Shown here in pieces: positions 11,421 through 48,143 of a DNA stretch of 48,143 bases. The notes below the pieces were generated by a model. The model had not been told where the DNA came from. It saw only the letters and a list, made by a program, of their open reading frames with translations, and made no database searches. This DNA is from Microgenomates group bacterium GW2011_GWF2_46_18. Its GTDB lineage: Bacteria; Patescibacteriota; Microgenomatia; UBA1400; UBA12108. The translations under genes and the position numbers were made by a program. The stretch's first letter is position 1; each line of letters opens with the position of its first letter. The stretch lies in the NCBI GenBank assembly GCA_001002415.1, contig LCMB01000006.1, positions 1 to 48,143 of the forward strand, read 5' to 3'.

Positions 11421-11449
11421 AGTATAACCCGAACCAGTTACCAGAGCAA
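11421..11449 (-). promoter_or_regulatory. promoter of the PBP gene, leaderless-type
   Basis: On minus strand TTGCTC (11449-11444), 17 nt, TATACT (11426-11421), 7 nt, ATG. Confidence 0.5.
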
Positions 11450-11451
11450 AT

Positions 11452-11479
11452 TTGACACAGCAAAAAATAGTGTTATATT
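11452..11479 (+). promoter_or_regulatory. promoter of the T-box operon
   Basis: TTGACA (11452-11457), 16 nt, TATATT (11474-11479). Confidence 0.6.
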
Positions 11480-11486
11480 TATAGGA

Positions 11487-11820
11487 CAAGTTAATAGGAA
11501 AGCGTTGATGGAGCCAATAGTAGGCTTGAGCGGGTAATCAGAAAGATGTCGGTTGCTGCAAGACATCCAAGAACTCAAGTCCGAATTTACTCTCCGAAGC
11601 AGGTCTGACAAAATCAGACACGGTAGTCCCCGTAATCAGACTAAGATGTGTCACACAAGAAACAGAGCATCTGGAAATGAGGTTACTCTCAGTTATTTCA
11701 GATCCCGTGTTTAGCGGGATTTTTTATAGCTAAAAGTAACGAAGCAGGGTTGGTATCGCCGCACTTGCAGGCCCCTGTCTACTCCCAATTATGGTTGGTG
11801 GTAGGCAGGGGCTTATTTGT
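11487..11820 (+). promoter_or_regulatory. T-box-like riboswitch leader
   Basis: Stem I lower helix GGAG/CTCC with GATG...CCGAAG; AGTA (11519-11522) opposite GAA (11583-11585); GGCTTGAG/CTCAAGTC; distal hairpin GATGTC/GACATC; T-box-like AGCAGGGTTGGTATCGCCGC (11743-11762); terminator GCCCCTGTCTAC/GTAGGCAGGGGC; competing pairing CAGGG (11745-11749)/CCCTG (11773-11777). Confidence 0.8.
11771..11820 (+). terminator. T-box regulatory terminator hairpin
   Basis: GCCCCTGTCTAC (11771-11782) pairs with GTAGGCAGGGGC (11801-11812) with one G-U wobble, followed by TTATTTGTTATT. Confidence 0.65.
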
Positions 11821-11836
11821 TATTAAAAGGATATCT

Positions 11837-12796
11837 ATGAACAAGACACACCCGGAAATCGAAGTGATGCCTCCTGGCACTCTTCCTCCGGCAGATACGG
11901 CCACACATATGATTTCTCTACTTAGGGCTGTCTACGTCAATCATGGCATTGCTAACCGGGTTAGAGATATTACTCGCGATATCGAATCGGGGAATCTGCA
12001 AACTTGGCTAGCCAAAAGAGAAGGTCAATTAGTGGCTACGGCCTCTCTCGTCCATCAACCAAACGGCGATGTAGAGATAGGACGAGCTGTCTCGCTAGAA
12101 AAAGGTAATGGCAAATTGCTTATGCTCCTAGCCAGTCTTGCCCACCTTAAAAATAATTCAGACGCACCTATCGTAGCAGAAGTTCGGGCTGCAGAACAAT
12201 TCGGTGGTATTCCCTCTGGAGAAGCAACTCAACATATTTGCTTCGAACTTTTAGATCTAGTGCCTCATGCGCTGGCGCCGTTCTTTAACCATGGAGGGCC
12301 CGTCCGCAATGAAAGTTTTATTCTGGCCCGAAGCGATCGGCAACCAGGGCGAACAGCCACCGAAATGGTGCTGTCCACGCTGACCAATCGAGATCTACGG
12401 GGGAGAGTCCAGAGAGTCAAACTAGTTCAGGATGAACCTTTTCAAATCATAGTTCCCGACACCAACGGGTCAACATTGTCCGAAATCTGGACTGCCAAAG
12501 ATATACAGTTTAAAGAAGGGTTCACTCTCTTCCCCATAGAAGTAACCGATGCCAATCTCGCATTAGTGGGTACTTTACTCACCAACCCGCGTATTGTCAT
12601 GTGTGGGATCGACCACCGTCAGGGAGAAAACGGCAAACCCATTATCTTATTCGGGACCGTTGGCAAAGACACGAAAGTTGCTCCTTCCAAAATTACCGAC
12701 GCACTTGCGCCTGCTGTCCGTCGCGACCTCCAAATATTGCCGATCAGTTTACCCAGCTTGGCAATCAAGATCTCAACACGACCGGCCATGGTCTGA
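11837..12796 (+). CDS. hypothetical protein, possibly GNAT-like acyltransferase; probably frameshifted near its 3' end
   Basis: ATG 11837 with AAAAGG upstream; GNAT-like layout is weak; alternative frame continues to 12846. Confidence 0.55.
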   Translation: MNKTHPEIEVMPPGTLPPADTATHMISLLRAVYVNHGIANRVRDITRDIESGNLQTWLAKREGQLVATASLVHQPNGDVEIGRAVSLEKGNGKLLMLLASLAHLKNNSDAPIVAEVRAAEQFGGIPSGEATQHICFELLDLVPHALAPFFNHGGPVRNESFILARSDRQPGRTATEMVLSTLTNRDLRGRVQRVKLVQDEPFQIIVPDTNGSTLSEIWTAKDIQFKEGFTLFPIEVTDANLALVGTLLTNPRIVMCGIDHRQGENGKPIILFGTVGKDTKVAPSKITDALAPAVRRDLQILPISLPSLAIKISTRPAMV

Positions 12797-12842
12797 GTGG
12801 GTTTTGGACAGATAAGGACGGCAAAATTTGGGGGAACTGGTC

Positions 12843-13910
12843 ATGAATAATCATTCCGTCTCATCCATTCTCCAAAAGCTTATCCACATCCCCTCGGTCA
12901 CGGGGGATACGAAAGCATGCAAACAAATCATCCACGAAGCTCACCATGTCTTAAATCTGCAGAAAGTTAAATCAAAGGTAATATCGCTACACAAAAAACC
13001 CATCCTTATCTGGGGAGAGCTCGATTTAGGGAAAACCACTTGGCTCATCAATTCTCATCTTGATGTCGTGCCAGGTAAGCCCTCTCAATTTATTCCCAAA
13101 GTCAGCAAGGGAAAAATTTGGGGTAGAGGCTCTGCAGACACCAAAAGTAGCTGCGCCATCATCCTCGCCAATTCTAAGCACTGGGTTTCACTGGCAAACG
13201 ACAAACATATAACTTTTATGTTAGTTGTTGATGAGGAAGTTGGAGGTGATACCACCAAACTTGTTTTACAAAAAATGCCCAAGTTAAAAGGGGGCATATT
13301 TTTCGAACCCACTAATGAACAAATGATCGTTCATGCGAAGGGAATTATTCAATTAAAAATTATTGCAGAAGGAAAAGCATGTCATGGCTCTCGGCCCTGG
13401 GGAGGGGATAATGCTCTCGAAAAATTGACCCATTCTCTAACTAAGTTCCGCCTCAAGCATCCTACTCCTACTCACGAAACTAGATCAACTACCTTCAACT
13501 TCTCTTTGCTGTCCGGTGGCACTGCTATTAATCAAGTCCCAGAGTCTGCTACTCTCTGGTGCGACATCAGGTGGAATCCACAGGATGATCCGCAAACAAT
13601 TATTTCTGATCTAAAGAAAATATTCCAAGACTGTAAAGTTAAAATTCTCAAACTTGAATCCCCGATCAATTGTTCACATAGAAGTAAGTTGTGTGAATCA
13701 TTCGTCCTTTCACTCAAAACCAATTCGATCAATCCAATTTTTGGTTTCGAACACGGTAGTTCAGACGCACGACACGCTACAGCGCGAAATATCCCAGCCA
13801 TAGTCTTTGGCCCAGTAGGAAAAAATCTTCATGGTCCAAACGAGTGGGTGAGTGAAAAAAGTTTAAGTAAAGTGCAAATGGTATTAGATCACTGGATTAA
13901 AAATATTTGA
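12843..13910 (+). CDS. M20-family metallopeptidase/deacylase
   Basis: INSHLDVVPG, GRGSADTKSSCA, VVDEEVGGDTT, FFEPTNEQ; C-terminal FEHGSSDARHATARNIPAIVFGP. Confidence 0.9.
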   Translation: MNNHSVSSILQKLIHIPSVTGDTKACKQIIHEAHHVLNLQKVKSKVISLHKKPILIWGELDLGKTTWLINSHLDVVPGKPSQFIPKVSKGKIWGRGSADTKSSCAIILANSKHWVSLANDKHITFMLVVDEEVGGDTTKLVLQKMPKLKGGIFFEPTNEQMIVHAKGIIQLKIIAEGKACHGSRPWGGDNALEKLTHSLTKFRLKHPTPTHETRSTTFNFSLLSGGTAINQVPESATLWCDIRWNPQDDPQTIISDLKKIFQDCKVKILKLESPINCSHRSKLCESFVLSLKTNSINPIFGFEHGSSDARHATARNIPAIVFGPVGKNLHGPNEWVSEKSLSKVQMVLDHWIKNI

Positions 13911-13928: not shown

Positions 13929-15080
13929 ATGAAAACCAATAAAGATCTTTTAACTCGTCGCGTCGCCAAGATTCTCCCTTCTAAAGAGGGGTTGGAAAAA
14001 TTAATCACCGGCAAAAAAATCCGTCTCTATCAAGGAGTAGACCCTACCTTCAAAAATCTCCATCTCGGTCATACCATCGGTTTCCGCAAACTTATGGACT
14101 TTGCCAATGCCGGCCACGAAGTTATTCTCCTCTTTGGCACCGGGACCGTCCTCGTCGGTGATCCCAGCTTGCGAGACACCGGCCGCAAGCTCATCACTCC
14201 CGAAGAGGTCGAAGCCAATATTCAGGAATGGAAAAATCAGGTTTCGCCCATTATCGACTTTGACAAGGTCGAGGTTCGCCAGAACGGTGACTGGCTTACC
14301 AAGATGACTCTCAAAGACATTATTCATGTCGCCAGTAACATCAGTGCCGTTCAACTTTTTAAACGAGACTCTTTCACCCGTCGGATCGCTAAAAACGATC
14401 CTGTCTGGTATCACGAAACCATGTACCCCTTACTCCAAGGTTACGATTCCGTTGTTATGGATGTGGATCTTGAAATTGGCGGCACCGATCAAGAATTTAA
14501 CATGCTCGTAGGGCGTGAACTCCAACGGAAAATGAACAACCGCGAAAAATACGTGCTTACCGTCCCCATGATTCTCGGTACCGATGGCAAAACTATGAGC
14601 AAATCCTCCGGCAATTGTATTTGGCTAACCGACACGGCCGAAGAGATGTACCGCAAAATTATGGCCGTCCAGGATGATCTCATCACCACCTACTTTGAGC
14701 TTTTGACCAATGTTTCCCTAGAGGAAGTTGATGCTCTAGACCCCACCCAACCGGTAGAGAACAAGAAAAAGCTAGCCTTTGATATTACTAAGCAATTTCA
14801 TGGGGAAGATGGCGCCCAAACAGCGGCCCGTCATTTCGAAACCGTGGTTCAACCTAAAGGGATTGATCCCTCCCAATCACCGATTACTCTGAAAGCCAAC
14901 CTCTTCGAAACGTTAAAAACCGCTGATCTTGGAGTGAGCAATAGCGACATCAAGCGCACCATCGAACAGGGAGGTGTAGAAATTGATGGCCAGAAAATTA
15001 CCGATCCTTTATCAGTCGTTTCGGGTAGTGAACTCAAATTTGGCAAGTCTATTCGCCGTCGCCTCGTAACTGGAGATTAA
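13929..15080 (+). CDS. tyrS: tyrosyl-tRNA synthetase
   Basis: GVDPTFKNLHLGHTIGF, DLEIGGTDQEFNMLVGRELQ, GKTMSKSSGNCIWL; C-terminal S4-like domain. Confidence 0.95.
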   Translation: MKTNKDLLTRRVAKILPSKEGLEKLITGKKIRLYQGVDPTFKNLHLGHTIGFRKLMDFANAGHEVILLFGTGTVLVGDPSLRDTGRKLITPEEVEANIQEWKNQVSPIIDFDKVEVRQNGDWLTKMTLKDIIHVASNISAVQLFKRDSFTRRIAKNDPVWYHETMYPLLQGYDSVVMDVDLEIGGTDQEFNMLVGRELQRKMNNREKYVLTVPMILGTDGKTMSKSSGNCIWLTDTAEEMYRKIMAVQDDLITTYFELLTNVSLEEVDALDPTQPVENKKKLAFDITKQFHGEDGAQTAARHFETVVQPKGIDPSQSPITLKANLFETLKTADLGVSNSDIKRTIEQGGVEIDGQKITDPLSVVSGSELKFGKSIRRRLVTGD

Positions 15081-17260: not shown

Positions 17261-17587
17261 ATGAAAACCTCCTCCGACCCTCGTCACAAAAAGAGAATTC
17301 TCCAAGTTCAAGCTCAATTTTCCCAGAGTTTTCACCCTGGTTTTACTACTCCCGTCGATCCCACGATCAGCCTCGCCGCTCCCGAGTGGCCGCTGTCCAA
17401 AATTAACAAAATTGATCTGGCTATTCTGCGAGTTGCTACCGACGAACTTCTCCATTCCGACACTCCTCCCAAAGTAGTGATCGACGAAGCTGTCGAGATC
17501 GCCAAAACCTACGGTACCGAAAGCAGTGCTAGTTTTGTGAATGGTGTCCTTGGCACTATTCTGAAAGGACTTCATGCCGAAAAATAA
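17261..17587 (+). CDS. nusB: transcription antitermination factor NusB
   Basis: [54 protein letters not shown]. Confidence 0.92.
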
Positions 17588-40470: not shown

Positions 40471-43400
40471 TTATATACATAGTCCCGCAAAGCCAATCGA
40501 TCCAAGAGAATTGTAAATCCTCCTGGGGTAACCTCGGTAATGGTTGCTTCCCACCAACGAGATGTTTACCATCGGAGCAACTTGGTAGGGAGTGGTAAAG
40601 TTCACCCGTACTTGATCGGTATAGGTTTTAACTGTTGCGATCCCTGCCATATCCTTGTCGCCAAAACTCACCCTCCCGACCAAACTGGTATTCCCTTCAA
40701 ACTGCAAAGCCTCCGGAGTATTTAACAGTTGGTTAATATCCAGTTTGCGATACAGTCCGTGGACAGCTCCGTCACTCATAAAAGTCTCCACGTAAGGAAT
40801 CAGGGTATCTCCGATCGAAAGACCAGCTACTTCCTCCTTGGGGATCTGAAAGCCGGCTGTTCTAGCCGCATAGTGCCACTCTCCTCCCTCTCTAAAGTAA
40901 ATTCTATGATTGGTAGTATCAATTCCTAGGAGTCCATCGGTGGCTCCTCCTGAGAAGTCAGAGTCAGAGATCGTCCCTGCCTTAGTATAGGTAGCTACTC
41001 CATTTAAGGTGCCATTGATTAGTCCCTGGACGTTAAGACCTGTTACTCCCGTATTAGAGTCTAAGACATACATGGTCTGGGTACTGCCTACTCCTACTTG
41101 AACCTTGACTTCATCTACATATACGGTCTTCCCAGCTTTCACTCTGACTCCATAGTTCTTGCTAGATGCTACGCCGGTAAAGCTACCTGTCAGCTTGTAC
41201 CAGCCTGTTCCTCCCATGGGAGTGTAGGTGGTGGTGAGAGTGGTCGTGTCGTAGTAAAGGGAGAGGTCTGCGGAGGTGACGACACTCCCATCGGTGTAGG
41301 CGTAGGCAATGAGGTTATATGTTTCTGTGTCTCCTACGTTGGCGGATTGAAGGTAATCTCCATAAGTAGTTCCCCCGACCAGTTTGACCGAGGCGGTACT
41401 ATTGTTGTATTTAATCGTTGTTTCTCTTGTCGCTGTTAGAGTTGTTGGTGTAATCTCTTCATACTCTCCTCCCGTCCCCCGAGGGAACAAACTAAAGTTA
41501 TCAAAGCTGTTGCCACTATATGTACTAAATAGCCCGTGTTTAATGTTGGTATTTGCTGTCATGGTTAGTTCTGCGCCTACTAAAGCGTTGTTGTAGTAGA
41601 CACGAAGTTTGGTCCCCTCACGGATTACCCGCAGGGTAGCACCTGCAGAATAGGTAACAGTCGTAGTTTGTTTATTGGTATAAACCCCTGCTACGGCTTC
41701 ATCTACTTTTACACTGGTGCCGTCATGGTAGATAATAATAAAGTTGGCAGGGCTTGAAGTACTATCCAGATTCAAAACTAATCCTGCCTGTGTCCCGGCA
41801 GTTAAAGTAACATTAGCGTCTGCTATCACATCACTATCACTGGTTGAGACAGTGGAGAAGAGGGAGGAGAGGGTGAGGGGCTTAACTAAGAAATTATCTA
41901 TAGTAATATCTTCTGTGGCACCTCTATTTATTTGTATAAGTGTTGAAGCTGCTCTACCAGTATATAATTTTGTTCCAACTCCTGTTATTCCACCAATAGC
42001 CATACCACTGACACCACCAATGTATGCGTTTAAGGTTCCTAAAGTAGAGTCTGTTAAATCAACATTAAATTGATACCATGTTCCTGTTGTGGCAGTGTTC
42101 TGATTTATACCAGTTCCTTTAGTATTGTCGCTAACCAATCGTGCTTTTCCAGAAACCTCAGTCACATAGTTATTTGCATCTTCTGTATCAACAAGTGTCC
42201 AACCTGTGGGATTGTCGCCAGACCATGAAGCAAAATCGCCGTTTGTAACTACACTATCTCCAACTGTTGGTGTAATCACATTGGTATTTCCTGATATTGC
42301 CCCACCTGTCCACTCTAGGGCAGGGGTAGTTTGCTCGTCTGGCCCAGTTGTCTCACTTGAGCCAATCGCCCCGTCCGCTCTGGTAAAAGTATCGTAGGCA
42401 AGAGGAGTAGGAAGCCATGTAGCGGTGGGGATGCGGATGTTGTCGGCGGTAAAGACCGAGGCGCCATAAGCCTGACCTACAAATGGGTACATGGGAGTTG
42501 TAGTTGTTACTTTTGTTGTATAAAGAAGTGTCCAATTTGTATATGCCCCGCCTTTTATAAACATATAGTGTCCAGTACCACGCAACACATCAGCAAGTAA
42601 ATAATCCGTCCCAGTAGAAAATGAGTTTGCAACGGCAATTCCAGTATCATAAATAGAGCCATTAAAATTAAATCCTTCTGTTCCAATCCCAGAACCAGAT
42701 GCAATTGTCCACCCAAATCTTACAATACCACTTGCACTATTTACTTTTATAATGGCTGTTTTCCCAGCAGTTCTGGCTTGGGAAGCATACCATAGTCCAG
42801 GGTCAGGAACACCAGTACCAACCCCCCCCGTTGCAAAACTCAACTGACTACCAGTAATACTCAATTTTGAATTAGTATCCACCACCGTCCTTGTTCCCCC
42901 AGTCGGTTCAGCAGATGTGCCATTGACTGCTCCGGCAGCACGGTCGGTAGTAAATTCATCATTCAGGGTGTAGCTAGGTTCCTCACTCCAACTAGTTAGG
43001 TCAGCGTCAAAGGTGCCGTTGGTGAGTTTGTTGGTGGGGTCAGTAGAGGTTGCATCCCAGGTCGTGGAGTTAGTGCCATAGGAAAGGCCGAGGACTTTAG
43101 TGCCAGAGTTAGTTAGCCTTAGTCCATCAACTCCACTGGTAGCTCCGATATCTAGTAGGGAGGTAGGAGCGGTGGTATTGATCCCGATATAGCCGGAGGA
43201 GGTGTCCGCTACTAGATCATTGGTATTGACGATAAAGTCACCGGTAGTAGCGAGTGTGACGTTCAGGTTCTGTCCAGCGGTGGGGGAGAGAGTGAGGGCT
43301 CCTCCCGTGCCCACTCCTTGCATAGTGAGGGCTCCGGTTATCCCAACGGTACTGGTCCAGTAGTTAGAGGTGTCATAGCCTAGTCGCTCTTGTTCAGTCA

Positions 43401-46400
43401 GGGCGATGACATGGAGCTTGGCTGATGGGGTAGTAGTTCCTATTCCCACTCTCCCTTCCGAAGTATCCACCACTAAATCATTGGTATTAACTTTAAAATC
43501 TCCGGTTGTAGCTAGAGATAGATTCAGTCCTGATCCCGAAGCGGGGGTAATGGTCAAGGCTCCGGTTGAGGTTAGAGAGTTGCCGGATAGATTAAGTGAC
43601 CCAGCGATATCGTTACTGGTTCCGTTAATATCTAGGTTACCTGTAAGAGAGAGTCCTCCACTCGGTGTTAGACTCCCTAGTACTGCTCCGGTTGAATCTT
43701 GCCACTCTTGGAGGTCCTCGGTTTGACCAGAGAAACCTTTGACAATTAAGGCTTGGAGACTAGCTAGGCCAGAATTGAGGGTAGTAGTTGATTCCACACT
43801 CATGCCCCCTAGTCCGGTGGTTGAGTTAGTGATCCCCAGGATGGTTCCGGCTCCGCTGGTATTAAAGAGAGCTAGGTTATCGACATACACAGTTTTGCCT
43901 CCCTTGACCTTCACTCCATAGTTCTTGGCACTGGCTACTCCGGTTAAGGTACCTGATAGTTTGTACCACCCGTCCCCGACCGAGGTATAGGTGGTAGAGA
44001 GGACGGCGGTGTCGTAGTAGAGCTCGAGGTCAGCGGAGGTAACTGCCGCTCCAGTGGTGTAGGCGTAGGCGGTGAGGTTATATGTTGAGGTATCGGGGAG
44101 GGTAACGGATTGAAGGTAGGTAGCATCTACTCCACCTGCTACCAGTTGAACTGATGCTTCTCCGGAGTACATAATACTGGTATTTCTAGTTGGAGTTATC
44201 TCTTCAAATGGTGCACTGGAATATTCTCCTCCTGTCCCCCTGGCAAACAAACTAAAGTTATCGAATGAGTTACCACTGTAGGTAGAGAATAGCCCATGTT
44301 TGGTGTTACTGATGATTGAGGCGTCAGTCACTGTTTGTTCTGTTCCTACCAAAGCGTTGTTGTAGTAGACACGAACCTTAAGAGTATTAGCATCACTGTG
44401 ATAGGTAACAACTTGCAGTGGTGCGCTATGTACATAAGTGGTCGTAGCACTAATTAAATTTGTCCATGTAGTAGCCGTTGTAAATTTATATAACTTAACA
44501 TAAGTGCCATCGGTATAAGCCACCAATCCTGCAGTCGGGGTGGTTGCATCATTTAAATTGGTTACAATTCCGGCCGGTGATATCGAATGTACGTCTGCCG
44601 CCGATAAAACATTTACGGTTGCTACCACATCAGTATCGCTCGTCGAAACCGTTGAAAAAAGTGACGAAAGAGTCATCGGTTTGACAGATATTTCATCAAA
44701 TAAATTTGTTGCCCCTAGTGTCGGATAATTCCACAATTTTTGGTATAGAGACGTTCCGCCACTTAAAAACATAGCTGTTTTCTCCGTCCAAGTTGAATTC
44801 TCAATTGCCTTCCCCCAATATTGTCTACCCCCATCTGTATAACCTCCCTCTATATACGCATTTATGGTACCCTTTTTATAGTAAAGGGACGATTTATACC
44901 ATACTCCGGTACTCATAGAAGATTGTTGTGATACGGTTCCGTAATCCGTAGTGGTATTAGTTATTTGCAAAGCATTACCCGATTGTCCACCGGCCACACT
45001 TTCAAGAGTCGCTTTCACCGGGGTCCAGCCAGAGGCATCACTTTCAAATGTTCCATTGGTAATTACTTCATCTCCCAATACCGGTGTGATGACATTTTTG
45101 TTAGAAGCAATTGCTCCCCCTGTCCACGCCAAACTCGGTGTAGTTTGCGAATCCGGTCCAGTTGTCTCACTACTGCCGATTGTCCCATCTGCTCGGGTAA
45201 AGGTATCGTAAGCTAAGGGAGTCGGTAACCACAAATCAGAGATTACTTTTATCTCATCGGCCGTGAACACAGATGTAGTCGAGCCGGCACTAATCGATGG
45301 CGTTTCTCCCGGCACCGAGAATCTAAAGGGCATGTAATTGGTATATGTGCCCTGAACTAAACCTTTTCCGTAATCTCCATAGTCTGCAATCCGCCATTTA
45401 TACTCTTCTCCAGGTGTCAGATTAAGTGTTTGTGTCGGTGATATCGAACAAACCAATCCACTACAAGCTTGGGCGACTGTGTACCACAGTACGTGTACAG
45501 CCGTTCCATCATTCTTATATGCTTCAAAACGGTAATATGTCGCCCCGGTAACTCCCGTCCAACTAAAAGTATTATTCCAAGAAGCTTGGTTATTAATCGG
45601 AGAGTTTAAAACCACGTATGATCCTGACCACCACGGAGTAGTCCAAAGTAAAGTCCAATTTGTGTATGATCCACCTTTTATGTACCAATAAAATCCGTTT
45701 GTCTGCATTACTCCGGCAACGTAATACGTTCCTGCTGTGTAGGTGCCAACAGCAGTCGCCGCAATATTATTTGAAGCAATCTGCAAGACACCGGACGCTG
45801 CAAAAACCAATCTATCGGTAATTGCACCACCGGCAACCGTATCCCAACCTACGTTGATTACTCCATTGGTATCTGATGCTATCACTTTCGCGACCAATAT
45901 CTTACCCGCCCCCGTCGTAATTGACGGATATCTGACTCCATCATTGGCTACCCCCCCAGTCGAAAAATTTAATATTCCCGATCCCACACTGATTTTTGAA
46001 TTTGTATCCACTGCTGTTCTGGTATTCACTCCATCGGTCGCCAGTGTGTTATTGACGGAACCCGCCGAAACAGTATCGGAAAACTCATCTTCAAGACCAT
46101 AAGTCAGTCCTACCCACCCAGTCAAATCCGTCTCAAACGTTCCGTTACTTAGTTTGTTCACGGATGAGAGGGCAGGGGAGTCAAGGTTAACTCCGGTTGA
46201 GTTCCACTTGATCGCCAACTTCGTGACATCACTGGTATCCGTTAGTTTCAGCCCCTCCACCCCAGTTGCCACCGATGAGGCGGTATCTCCCAGGACGGTG
46301 AGGGTATTAGCTGGGGTAGTCGTGCCGATCCCTACGTTCCCTCCAGCCATCAACAGTAAATTTTCACTCCCCGTGGTCGTAATCTGATTCGTTGCCCCTC

Positions 46401-47769
46401 CATCAATCGTGATTGTTCCTCCCGTCACCGTCCCCGTGGTGGTAATCCCATCGGCTCCCGTATCAATCGCACCGAAGCCGCTGGTTATACTGCCCGAATT
46501 TAAAGCTCCCACGGTGGTCAATGAGGAAGTAACGATATTCACCCCCAAAGTACTCCCGCTCAAAGCGGAGGTTCCTCCTATCAACAAAGCTCCCGTCAAA
46601 TTAGCGTTCCCACTCTCATCAATGTAAGCCACATTCGTCGCATTATGCCCATATATCGTCAAAGGGTAGGCCGTGACCGGTACCGAAGCCACTCCCGAAT
46701 ATCCCAAAATAATGTCTCCATCCTCATCCACCACTGCTTTCTCATAACCATTGATCGCCAGTCCCAACAGTTGTCCGTTGGCTACCGCCGTCGTCGGATT
46801 AATAATCACCGAAGCCTGGGCAAAGGTGGAGGCGGTTGGAGCATAACTAAAAGTAGTTTGACCCGAAAATGTCAGAGAGTCATTGGAATAAATGTTCGCT
46901 ACCATTAGATTATCAAACCGCAAAGCCGCTGATCCCAAATCACTCCCCAAGTCTGTATCCGGTAGCAAATTTGTTCCATCTGCTATTCGGCCGGTAAAGG
47001 TAACCGTATCGGTCACTGCATTGCCCAAAGTTATATTCCCATTCAAGGCTAGGGTTCCATCTAAGGTGGTAGTTCCGGTTACTCCCAGGGTAGAGTCTAG
47101 GGTGAGGGCTCCCGTATAGTGGCCGGTACCTGCAACATCTAGTTTGTAGGTGGGGGTGAGGGTACCGACTCCCAGGTTATCGGTAGTAGTTGTTAAGTAG
47201 ACACTAGTCCCTGAGTCAGTAAAGCCGGAGAGGGTGTAATCAACTGCCGCACTAGTAATGGTGATCTTGTCACTGTCGGGGTCAGTTGTGAGGGTAATCC
47301 CTCCACTCCCAGCCAGGGTTAAGGTATCGGCATTGGTATCGGTACTTAAGCTGGTCTGGCCTGAAACCGCAATCGTTTTAAAGATATTCTGTCCGCTCCC
47401 CGTATCGGAGTTAGTGAGAGTAAGGCCGGAGAGGGTCATCCCACTCCCCGCGGTTAAGGTTAAAGCTCCGGTTTGTCCTTGGAGGGAGAGTACTCCCGTA
47501 TTAGTGAGGGTAGGGGACTGACCCTCGGAGACTCTGATCCCACTTCCCCCGGTTAACGAATAGATTACGTTGGGAGCTGTGAGGGGTTGGGTAAAGCGGG
47601 CCGGGACATTGACGGTAAAGTAGAGCTGTTCCTGGGTGGTTCCAAGCACACTCTGCTCGATTTGTTCCTGTGGCTCAGCTGGAGCCGGCTGTTTCTTCCC
47701 CACTAGCCAGATCCCCCCAATTCCCAGGAGTCCCAATCCGATTATGACCAAACCTCGTTTCATATTCAT
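40471..47769 (-). CDS. giant modular surface/fibre-like protein (about 2,430 aa) with N-terminal membrane anchor/signal; 3' end frameshifted
   Basis: KRGLVIIGLGLLGIGGIWLVGKK N-terminal hydrophobic segment; at least four GIGTTxPxxxLxV-type repeats; two large homologous blocks; start 47769 chosen over 47805. Confidence 0.85.
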   Translation of the reverse strand: MNMKRGLVIIGLGLLGIGGIWLVGKKQPAPAEPQEQIEQSVLGTTQEQLYFTVNVPARFTQPLTAPNVIYSLTGGSGIRVSEGQSPTLTNTGVLSLQGQTGALTLTAGSGMTLSGLTLTNSDTGSGQNIFKTIAVSGQTSLSTDTNADTLTLAGSGGITLTTDPDSDKITITSAAVDYTLSGFTDSGTSVYLTTTTDNLGVGTLTPTYKLDVAGTGHYTGALTLDSTLGVTGTTTLDGTLALNGNITLGNAVTDTVTFTGRIADGTNLLPDTDLGSDLGSAALRFDNLMVANIYSNDSLTFSGQTTFSYAPTASTFAQASVIINPTTAVANGQLLGLAINGYEKAVVDEDGDIILGYSGVASVPVTAYPLTIYGHNATNVAYIDESGNANLTGALLIGGTSALSGSTLGVNIVTSSLTTVGALNSGSITSGFGAIDTGADGITTTGTVTGGTITIDGGATNQITTTGSENLLLMAGGNVGIGTTTPANTLTVLGDTASSVATGVEGLKLTDTSDVTKLAIKWNSTGVNLDSPALSSVNKLSNGTFETDLTGWVGLTYGLEDEFSDTVSAGSVNNTLATDGVNTRTAVDTNSKISVGSGILNFSTGGVANDGVRYPSITTGAGKILVAKVIASDTNGVINVGWDTVAGGAITDRLVFAASGVLQIASNNIAATAVGTYTAGTYYVAGVMQTNGFYWYIKGGSYTNWTLLWTTPWWSGSYVVLNSPINNQASWNNTFSWTGVTGATYYRFEAYKNDGTAVHVLWYTVAQACSGLVCSISPTQTLNLTPGEEYKWRIADYGDYGKGLVQGTYTNYMPFRFSVPGETPSISAGSTTSVFTADEIKVISDLWLPTPLAYDTFTRADGTIGSSETTGPDSQTTPSLAWTGGAIASNKNVITPVLGDEVITNGTFESDASGWTPVKATLESVAGGQSGNALQITNTTTDYGTVSQQSSMSTGVWYKSSLYYKKGTINAYIEGGYTDGGRQYWGKAIENSTWTEKTAMFLSGGTSLYQKLWNYPTLGATNLFDEISVKPMTLSSLFSTVSTSDTDVVATVNVLSAADVHSISPAGIVTNLNDATTPTAGLVAYTDGTYVKLYKFTTATTWTNLISATTTYVHSAPLQVVTYHSDANTLKVRVYYNNALVGTEQTVTDASIISNTKHGLFSTYSGNSFDNFSLFARGTGGEYSSAPFEEITPTRNTSIMYSGEASVQLVAGGVDATYLQSVTLPDTSTYNLTAYAYTTGAAVTSADLELYYDTAVLSTTYTSVGDGWYKLSGTLTGVASAKNYGVKVKGGKTVYVDNLALFNTSGAGTILGITNSTTGLGGMSVESTTTLNSGLASLQALIVKGFSGQTEDLQEWQDSTGAVLGSLTPSGGLSLTGNLDINGTSNDIAGSLNLSGNSLTSTGALTITPASGSGLNLSLATTGDFKVNTNDLVVDTSEGRVGIGTTTPSAKLHVIALTEQERLGYDTSNYWTSTVGITGALTMQGVGTGGALTLSPTAGQNLNVTLATTGDFIVNTNDLVADTSSGYIGINTTAPTSLLDIGATSGVDGLRLTNSGTKVLGLSYGTNSTTWDATSTDPTNKLTNGTFDADLTSWSEEPSYTLNDEFTTDRAAGAVNGTSAEPTGGTRTVVDTNSKLSITGSQLSFATGGVGTGVPDPGLWYASQARTAGKTAIIKVNSASGIVRFGWTIASGSGIGTEGFNFNGSIYDTGIAVANSFSTGTDYLLADVLRGTGHYMFIKGGAYTNWTLLYTTKVTTTTPMYPFVGQAYGASVFTADNIRIPTATWLPTPLAYDTFTRADGAIGSSETTGPDEQTTPALEWTGGAISGNTNVITPTVGDSVVTNGDFASWSGDNPTGWTLVDTEDANNYVTEVSGKARLVSDNTKGTGINQNTATTGTWYQFNVDLTDSTLGTLNAYIGGVSGMAIGGITGVGTKLYTGRAASTLIQINRGATEDITIDNFLVKPLTLSSLFSTVSTSDSDVIADANVTLTAGTQAGLVLNLDSTSSPANFIIIYHDGTSVKVDEAVAGVYTNKQTTTVTYSAGATLRVIREGTKLRVYYNNALVGAELTMTANTNIKHGLFSTYSGNSFDNFSLFPRGTGGEYEEITPTTLTATRETTIKYNNSTASVKLVGGTTYGDYLQSANVGDTETYNLIAYAYTDGSVVTSADLSLYYDTTTLTTTYTPMGGTGWYKLTGSFTGVASSKNYGVRVKAGKTVYVDEVKVQVGVGSTQTMYVLDSNTGVTGLNVQGLINGTLNGVATYTKAGTISDSDFSGGATDGLLGIDTTNHRIYFREGGEWHYAARTAGFQIPKEEVAGLSIGDTLIPYVETFMSDGAVHGLYRKLDINQLLNTPEALQFEGNTSLVGRVSFGDKDMAGIATVKTYTDQVRVNFTTPYQVAPMVNISLVGSNHYRGYPRRIYNSLGSIGFAGLCI
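41105..43035 (-). repeat. internal protein-level repeat, copy 2
   Basis: LTNGTFDADLTSW ... WLPTPLAYDTFTRADGAIGSSETTGPDEQTTPALEWTGGAI ... KHGLFSTYSGNSFDNFSLFPRGTGGEY ... GKTVYVDEVKV. Confidence 0.8.
43870..46165 (-). repeat. internal protein-level repeat, copy 1
   Basis: LSNGTFETDLTGW ... WLPTPLAYDTFTRADGTIGSSETTGPDSQTTPSLAWTGGAI ... KHGLFSTYSGNSFDNFSLFARGTGGEY ... GKTVYVDNLAL. Confidence 0.8.
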
Positions 47770-47770
47770 A

Positions 47771-48143
47771 TTATTCAATTCCTCCCGTAGGAACTGAGAT
47801 CGCAAACCAATAGTAAGAATAATCGCGGGGAGCCAGTGAATCTAACTGTAAAGTGAACCCGGCGGAAGAAGCATTGGTCAAAGATACTCTTCTCCCCTCC
47901 GCTAGGAATGCCGAATCACTCGCTGTCGGCGTTGTGAGTGTATAGGTAATAATCGGCGTACTTGCAAACGGTGTCTGGAAGGCTACATCCACTTTATCGG
48001 TATACATACTAATCGTCGCCACTCCCGCCATATCGGAATCAGCGAAGGTCACTCGGTTGTTAAAGGTCACATCGTTGGTGAGGGTGATGGCGGAACTCGT
48101 ACTGAGTAATTGGTTAATATCCAGTTTGCGGTAGAGTCCGTGA
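47771..48143 (-). CDS. C-terminal part of a second fibre-like paralogue, truncated by window edge
   Basis: HGLYRKLDINQLLSTSSAITLTNDVTFNNRVTFADSDMAGVATISMYTDKVDVAFQTPF...GFTLQLDSLAPRDYSYYWFAISVPTGGIE*. Confidence 0.85.
   Translation of the reverse strand, partial: HGLYRKLDINQLLSTSSAITLTNDVTFNNRVTFADSDMAGVATISMYTDKVDVAFQTPFASTPIITYTLTTPTASDSAFLAEGRRVSLTNASSAGFTLQLDSLAPRDYSYYWFAISVPTGGIE

What the first reader, a model, noticed from the sequence alone, without database searches (positions are those of the whole stretch)
11487..11820. T-box-like leader controlling an operon that ends in tyrS
The leader has T-box hallmarks: lower stem I GATG/CCGAAG-type element, AGTA opposite GAA, specifier region GAATTTAC, apical hairpin, AGATG...CATCT stem, a T-box-like GGGTTGGTATCGCCGC whose TGGT could pair with an ACCA tRNA end, and a terminator (GCCCCTG...) that competes with an antiterminator (CAGGG/CCCTG). 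The specifier is ambiguous: immediately after GAA it is TTT (Phe, followed by A), two nt later it is TAC (Tyr, 11588-11590), which fits tyrS downstream. T-boxes are best known from Firmicutes and Actinobacteria, so one in a probable CPR genome is worth following.
Basis: partly seen in the sequence, partly recalled or inferred. Interest (0 to 1): 0.75.

Follow-up and report, generated by a model that had tools for sequence, protein, structure and literature searches.

The report
Tyrosine T-box in a Patescibacteria genome
A tiny-genome bacterium of the Patescibacteria (CPR) appears to sense tyrosine starvation with a tRNA-binding RNA switch (a T-box) in front of its tyrosyl-tRNA synthetase operon; the switch type is known, but its abundance in this phylum, an extra conserved terminator-like hairpin, and relatives in which it precedes the very tRNA gene it senses look new.

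Summary
Window 11496-11779 (+) matches the whole Rfam T-box model (71.9 bits, genome-wide E 3e-16), although below Rfam's curated 93-bit cut-off. Stem I, specifier loop, apical T-loop motif, F-box, antiterminator bulge (UGGU) and a mutually exclusive terminator are present; in an alignment of 36 related leaders 23 of 24 stem I pairs show compensatory changes. The specifier is UAC (tyrosine), not UUU: a register rule gives UAC here and in relatives that precede tRNA-Tyr or tyrS, and five Bacillota tyrS T-boxes also carry UAC. The element should switch a three-gene operon (GNAT-fold protein, M20 peptidase, tyrS) by tRNA-Tyr-dependent antitermination. The genome belongs to the Microgenomates/Patescibacteria, where T-boxes prove common (151 of 281 genomes of the class, 95 of 287 of the phylum). 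Two features look new. A terminator-like hairpin plus U-tract sits inside stem III, before the antiterminator, in 30 of 36 Tyr T-boxes (shuffles 3.6%; 0 of 5 Bacillota controls). In sister genomes T-boxes lie directly upstream of the cognate tRNA gene (Tyr, Phe, Arg); in the window genome tRNA-Tyr is elsewhere. Function is inferred; nothing was tested experimentally.

The parts
11452..11479 (+). sigma-70-type promoter TTGACA-16 nt-TATATT; predicted start about 11486-11488
   Evidence: 11 of 12 consensus matches; position fits the leader start; inference
11496..11779 (+). T-box leader, full length of Rfam RF00230
   Evidence: 71.9 bits, E 3.4e-16 genome-wide
11502..11600 (+). stem I: base GC/GC, K-turn region, lower stem GGAG/CUCC, upper stem, distal hairpin
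   Evidence: alignment A1 of 36 leaders: 23 of 24 pairs with compensatory changes; 0 of 500 shuffles reach the covariation score
11519..11522 (+). AGUA of the specifier loop (opposite GAA 11583-11585)
   Evidence: invariant or nearly invariant columns
11539..11567 (+). distal end of stem I with the double T-loop motif (CAGAAAG ... GGUUGCUGCAAG)
   Evidence: conserved columns; tRNA-elbow contact per review PMC7583486
11588..11590 (+). specifier codon UAC (tyrosine)
   Evidence: register rule; Bacillota tyrS T-boxes have GAAUUAC / GAAUAC
11603..11619 (+). stem II hairpin
   Evidence: fold
11620..11636 (+). stem IIA with F-box-like CCGUAAU
   Evidence: matches the CM consensus CGguuauuucCGUUA; pseudoknot not tested
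11644..11672 (+). extra hairpin AGAUGUGUC...CAGAGCAUCU between IIA/B and stem III
   Evidence: an insertion relative to Rfam; similar GUGUC...GAGC motifs seen by eye in many relatives
11682..11740 (+). stem III with outer stem
   Evidence: fold -23.8 kcal/mol; outer stem at or beyond the best 5% of shuffles in about half of relatives
11701..11725 (+). T1: terminator-like hairpin GAUCCCG/CGGGAU plus U6, inside stem III
   Evidence: -11.7 kcal/mol; conserved in 30 of 36 Tyr T-boxes, shuffles 3.6%
11745..11777 (+). antiterminator: A1 CAGGG/CCCUG, bulge UUGGUAUC with UGGU (11751-11754), A2 GCC/GGC
   Evidence: -13.4 kcal/mol; A1 5-nt exact complement found in 34 of 36 leaders
11769..11823 (+). T2: main intrinsic terminator, 5' arm shared with the antiterminator, U-rich tail
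   Evidence: -33.2 kcal/mol
11837..12796 (+). gene 1: 319-aa GNAT-fold protein, T-box-associated family
   Evidence: no Pfam family; weak FeeM hit E 0.11; low-confidence model whose listed PDB matches are GNAT-type transferases; homologues behind T-boxes
12828..13910 (+). gene 2: M20 peptidase (DapE/ArgE-like)
   Evidence: PF01546 E 8e-21, TIGR01910 E 5e-45 below its cut-off
13929..15080 (+). gene 3: tyrS, the only tyrosyl-tRNA synthetase found in the genome
   Evidence: TIGR00234 E 4.5e-92; one match in G000

Best explanation
The element is a tyrosine-specific, transcription-attenuating (class I) T-box riboswitch in a Microgenomates (Patescibacteria/CPR) genome. Uncharged tRNA-Tyr(GUA) pairs with UAC at 11588-11590, its elbow docks on the distal T-loops of stem I, and its free 3' ACCA end pairs with UGGU at 11751-11754. 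This stabilises the antiterminator (11745-11777) and prevents terminator T2 (11769-11814), so the GNAT/M20/tyrS operon is transcribed; charged tRNA-Tyr cannot do this and transcription stops. The hairpin plus U-tract T1 inside stem III most likely acts as a strong pause or leaky terminator that gives the tRNA time to bind before the antiterminator is made. Shown: sequence elements, pairing conservation, specifier register, operon content. Inferred: tRNA binding, read-through, and the role of T1.
For: Full-length RF00230 match, E 3.4e-16, the only one in the genome. RF00230 matches in 34 of 53 relatives, 151 of 281 of the class, 95 of 287 of the phylum. Stem I covariation: 143 double-changed cells against 58 in shuffles, 23 of 24 predicted pairs compensatory. 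UAC by register; GAAUUAC shared with Niallia, Cytobacillus, Paenibacillus and Peptoclostridium tyrS T-boxes, GAAUAC in Pusillibacter. Own tRNA-Tyr has anticodon GTA and discriminator A, matching UGGU. Antiterminator and terminator share 11773-11777. tyrS lies downstream of a Tyr T-box on the same contig in 13 of 18 checked genomes with a convincing TyrS (positions). Promoter of 11/12 consensus.
Against: Score below Rfam's gathering cut-off (but the Paenibacillus tyrS T-box, 80.1 bits, is too). The specifier loop has one extra U, and the T-box sequence one extra U and a C-to-U change relative to consensus. The T2 U-tract is interrupted (UUAUUUGUUAUU). The closest TyrS relatives by sequence (L031, L040, L044) have no T-box directly before tyrS. 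No expression data; stem IIA/B pseudoknot not tested.
Confidence: 0.92

Rival explanations
1. The leader senses tRNA-Phe (UUU) or tRNA-Leu (UUA) rather than tRNA-Tyr.
For: UUU directly follows GAA and is followed by A; pheS and pheT lie about 3-5 kb upstream in the window. In the most common spacing (GAA plus one nucleotide) the window would read UUA.
Against: Counted from the 3' side (one nucleotide before CUCC) the codon is UAC, as in tRNA-Tyr- or tyrS-linked T-boxes where the rule reads cleanly, short stem I forms included; L006 carries the same kind of extra nucleotide; the operon ends in tyrS; TBDB gives UUU as 1% of Phe specifiers (PMC7778990).
Confidence: 0.04
2. A decaying T-box that no longer switches.
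For: Lower score than many relatives, extra nucleotides in two loops, interrupted U-tract at T2, only T-box in this genome.
Against: All helices intact, strong promoter, T2 -33 kcal/mol with full antiterminator overlap.
Confidence: 0.08
3. Translational (class II) T-box.
For: Long leader; class II forms exist in Actinobacteria (PMC7583486).
Against: Strong terminator hairpin with U-rich tail; the T2 stem ends about 11 nt before the ribosome binding site and no sequestering pairing was seen in the folds.
Confidence: 0.03
4. Leader-peptide attenuator.
For: Terminator before a synthetase operon.
Against: Leader ORFs of 8-53 codons hold at most one Tyr codon; CM match and covariation.
Confidence: 0.01

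Closest known systems
tyrS T-box leaders of Bacillota (Niallia, Cytobacillus, Paenibacillus, Peptoclostridium, Pusillibacter fetched here; Bacillus subtilis tyrS from knowledge)
   Same: Long stem I with AGUA/GAA, UAC specifier, distal T-loops, F-box, UGGU antiterminator, terminator, tyrS downstream.
   Different: The five fetched leaders have no terminator-like hairpin plus U-tract before the antiterminator (0 of 5) and are shorter (198-249 nt against 284); the window has an extra hairpin between IIA/B and stem III, and tyrS is third in the operon.
Short stem I T-boxes (intermediate or ultrashort, as in Actinobacteria; review PMC7583486)
   Same: Many Microgenomates relatives carry the specifier in the apical loop of a very short stem I.
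   Different: The window's own element has a long stem I. The review describes short forms mainly for translational T-boxes; the Microgenomates short forms appear to be followed by terminators (seen by eye).
Rfam RF00230 (T-box leader)
   Same: Full-length match with significant E-value.
   Different: 71.9 bits, below the curated 93.

Membership tests
T-box riboswitch (RF00230) | Significant full-length covariance model match | tested here: met
   1-219 of 219, E 3.4e-16 genome-wide
T-box riboswitch (RF00230) | Rfam curated gathering score (93 bits; a database threshold, not a biological feature) | tested here: not met
   71.9 bits; a Paenibacillus tyrS T-box scores 80.1 and also misses it
T-box riboswitch (RF00230) | Stem I with K-turn region, AGUA/GAA specifier loop and distal T-loops | tested here: met
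T-box riboswitch (RF00230) | Specifier codon matches the controlled amino acid | tested here: met
   UAC by register and tyrS in the operon
T-box riboswitch (RF00230) | Antiterminator with UGGN bulge, N complementary to the tRNA discriminator | tested here: met
   UGGU; own tRNA-Tyr discriminator A
T-box riboswitch (RF00230) | Terminator mutually exclusive with antiterminator (class I) | tested here: met
   shared strand 11773-11777
T-box riboswitch (RF00230) | Stem IIA/B pseudoknot with F-box | tested here: inconclusive
   F-box-like CCGUAAU present; pseudoknot pairing not tested
T-box riboswitch (RF00230) | Binds uncharged tRNA and antiterminates | not testable with these tools
   needs biochemistry
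Translational (class II) T-box | Sequesters the ribosome binding site instead of terminating | tested here: not met
   intrinsic terminator present, no sequestering pairing in folds

The most novel reading that the evidence does not exclude
Patescibacterial tyrosine T-boxes are a two-barrier attenuator: RNA polymerase must first pass a terminator (T1) built into stem III before it meets the tRNA-controlled terminator T2, and in sister lineages the controlled transcript carries the gene of the sensed tRNA itself together with its synthetase, closing a tRNA autoregulation loop not described for T-boxes in the literature I could search.
Probability: 0.35. Interest if true: 0.78.

Novelty: new variant of a known kind. 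Interest (0 to 1): 0.58.

Why it matters
T-boxes are described mainly for Bacillota and Actinobacteria; the 2008 survey (PMC2494555, Table 3) finds them only in Firmicutes, Actinobacteria, Chloroflexi, Deinococcus-Thermus and Proteobacteria. Searches for T-box together with candidate phyla or Patescibacteria found no open paper. Finding T-boxes in about half of the sampled genomes of this class and a third of a phylum sample makes them a major regulatory system of bacteria with very small genomes and bears on the age of the mechanism. The stem III terminator and the T-box/tRNA-gene operons are directly testable: do T-boxes control tRNA supply, and why would starvation for charged tRNA raise the tRNA as well as the synthetase?

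Tried and rejected
Default Rfam scan of the window found only tRNA-Val. Leader-peptide attenuation: no Tyr-rich ORF. Regulation of T1 by an alternative upstream pairing: complementarity to the T1 5' arm is no better than shuffles (median rank 51.5 of 100). Pfam/NCBIfam for gene 1: no family; structure prediction with five sequences reached only pLDDT 46, so only the GNAT fold is taken from it. Literature searches for CPR or Patescibacteria T-boxes or for T-boxes on tRNA genes gave nothing on point; the held library lacks most subscription papers, so absence is weak evidence.

Full report
What is there. The region 11440-11840 reads as promoter, T-box leader and operon start. A sigma-70-type promoter, TTGACA-16-TATATT, lies at 11452-11479 (11 of 12 consensus positions). 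From 11496 to 11779 the + strand matches the whole Rfam T-box model RF00230 with 71.9 bits (E 1.1e-15 for the stretch; E 3.4e-16 for the 674-kb genome, where it is the only match). It misses the curated score of 93, which explains its absence from a default scan; a Paenibacillus tyrS T-box also misses it at 80.1 bits. The leader folds far better than dinucleotide shuffles (z -5.2).

Which organism. TyrS relatives with titles in the genome collection are Microgenomates and other Patescibacteria (Woesebacteria, Blackburnbacteria, Beckwithbacteria, Chisholmbacteria, Collierbacteria). The genome is 674 kb in 24 contigs, 89% complete.

Conservation. RF00230 has matches in 34 of 53 close relatives, 151 of 281 genomes of the class and 95 of 287 of a phylum sample. 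I aligned stem I of 36 long leaders. For the window's stem I, 143 cells carry a double change that keeps the pair (shuffles 58, 0 of 500 reach it), and sliding the partners by 1-3 columns lowers every measure. RNAalifold on the same alignment predicts 24 pairs, 23 of them with compensatory changes. Caveat: 35 of these 36 rows were chosen because UAC is in the specifier region, so the invariance of UAC in that alignment is by selection.

Specifier. An independent rule avoids this selection: take the three nucleotides one position 5' of the 3' strand of the lower stem. It gives UAC at 11588-11590 and UAC for T-boxes followed by tRNA-Tyr or tyrS, including shortened stem I ones such as L021, L161 and L178. 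The rule fails or is ambiguous for a few (L153, L170, and L183/L189, where UAC is the second choice). Five Bacillota tyrS T-boxes fetched as outside controls have GAAUUAC (four) or GAAUAC (one). The window has one extra U between GAA and UAC, as L006 has one extra nucleotide. The TBDB paper reports UAC as 99% of Tyr and UUU as 1% of Phe specifiers (PMC7778990). The genome's tRNA-Tyr has anticodon GUA and a discriminator A, complementary to the last U of UGGU.

Switch. The antiterminator (CAGGG/CCCUG, bulge UUGGUAUC, GCC/GGC; -13.4 kcal/mol) and the terminator T2 (-33.2 kcal/mol) share 11773-11777 and exclude each other. An exact 5-nt complement for the A1 helix was found in 34 of 36 leaders.

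Operon. Gene 1 (11837-12796) has no Pfam or NCBIfam family at the default threshold. Its closest hints are a sub-threshold match to FeeM, an N-acyl amino acid synthase (E 0.11), and a low-confidence model whose listed PDB matches are acetyltransferases of the GNAT type. Homologues (38-40% identical) are the first or second gene behind the T-boxes of L005, L008, L014 and L186, so the family is T-box-associated. Gene 2 is an M20 peptidase of the DapE/ArgE group. Gene 3 is tyrS (TIGR00234, E 4.5e-92), the only TyrS match in the genome. Comparing T-box and tyrS positions, tyrS lies downstream of a Tyr T-box on the same contig in 13 of 18 genomes; other genes often stand between. A plausible reading is release of tyrosine from acylated or peptide-bound forms plus charging of tRNA-Tyr; this is inference.

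Terminator inside stem III. The window carries GAUCCCG...CGGGAU followed by U6 (11701-11725) before the antiterminator. The same kind of hairpin plus U-tract was found by a fixed rule in 30 of 36 Tyr T-boxes, against 3.6% of shuffled sequences, and in 36 of 45 Tyr against 12 of 65 other T-boxes (Fisher p about 1e-10, not corrected for shared ancestry). None of the five Bacillota tyrS T-boxes has it. No alternative upstream pairing that would control it stands out. I read it as a pause or leaky terminator; a true second terminator is not excluded.

T-boxes in front of tRNA genes. In 19 of 139 T-box loci a tRNA gene starts on the same strand within 300 nt of the end of the T-box match: 15 tRNA-Tyr (two of them near-identical loci), one tRNA-Tyr-like gene with an altered anticodon loop (L093), one tRNA-Phe followed by pheS (L185, UUC), and two Arg clusters of three tRNA-Arg genes followed by an ArgRS (L204, argS; L205, ArgRS N-terminal domain behind a B3/4 domain). 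In 11 of the 19 loci the tRNA starts 0-10 nt after the U-tract, leaving no room for a separate promoter outside the terminator. L204 and L205 have TATAAT between terminator and tRNA, so an own promoter is possible there. Seven of 18 checked genomes hold two tRNA-Tyr genes, one of them the T-box-linked one. In the window genome the single tRNA-Tyr found is elsewhere (contig C3, near 35303).

Known or new. Mechanism and membership are those of a class I T-box. T-boxes in Patescibacteria, the stem III terminator-like hairpin and T-box/tRNA operons were not found in the literature searched; the library is incomplete, so novelty is provisional.

Noticed in passing
L003, L015, L021, L078, L080, L086, L088, L090, L155, L157, L161, L169, L178, L183, L189 (tRNA-Tyr); L185 (tRNA-Phe); L204, L205 (three tRNA-Arg each): T-boxes directly upstream of the tRNA gene they should sense, often followed by the cognate synthetase; the anticodon matches the specifier amino acid.
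   Followed up: partly
L093, about 119-207 nt downstream of the T-box: A tRNA-Tyr-like gene with an abnormal anticodon loop (CGGTTAG instead of CTGTAAA) behind a Tyr T-box: pseudogene or a tRNA with a non-translational role.
   Followed up: no
L019, L020, L021, L023, L140, L150, L168, L174, L191 and others: Short T-boxes whose specifier sits in the apical loop of a roughly 4-5 bp stem I, apparently with transcription terminators: Trp UGG, Pro CCC, Gly GGC, Asp GAC, Ile AUC, Ser AGC/UCC, Arg CGC, matching the downstream gene.
   Followed up: partly
L004, L008, L011, L013, L014: Long T-boxes that read AAC (Asn) in the specifier register although L008 and L014 precede the same gene family as L005, which reads UAC; in L004, L005 and L008 tyrS lies just upstream of the T-box.
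   Followed up: no
L138 (G001): Two T-boxes in tandem about 500 nt apart: a short Arg-like one (UCGCAA loop) and a long Tyr one (UAC).
   Followed up: no
window 11837-12796 and L005, L008, L014, L186: Unnamed T-box-associated protein family with GNAT-like fold and a weak FeeM (N-acyl amino acid synthase) match; the partner M20 peptidase could be an amidohydrolase.
   Followed up: partly
window 17261-17587: NusB-like protein of 108 aa that matches only the C-terminal half of the family profile (63-132 of 133).
   Followed up: no
window 40471-47805 (-): ORF of 2444 aa in a 674-kb genome, not examined.
   Followed up: no
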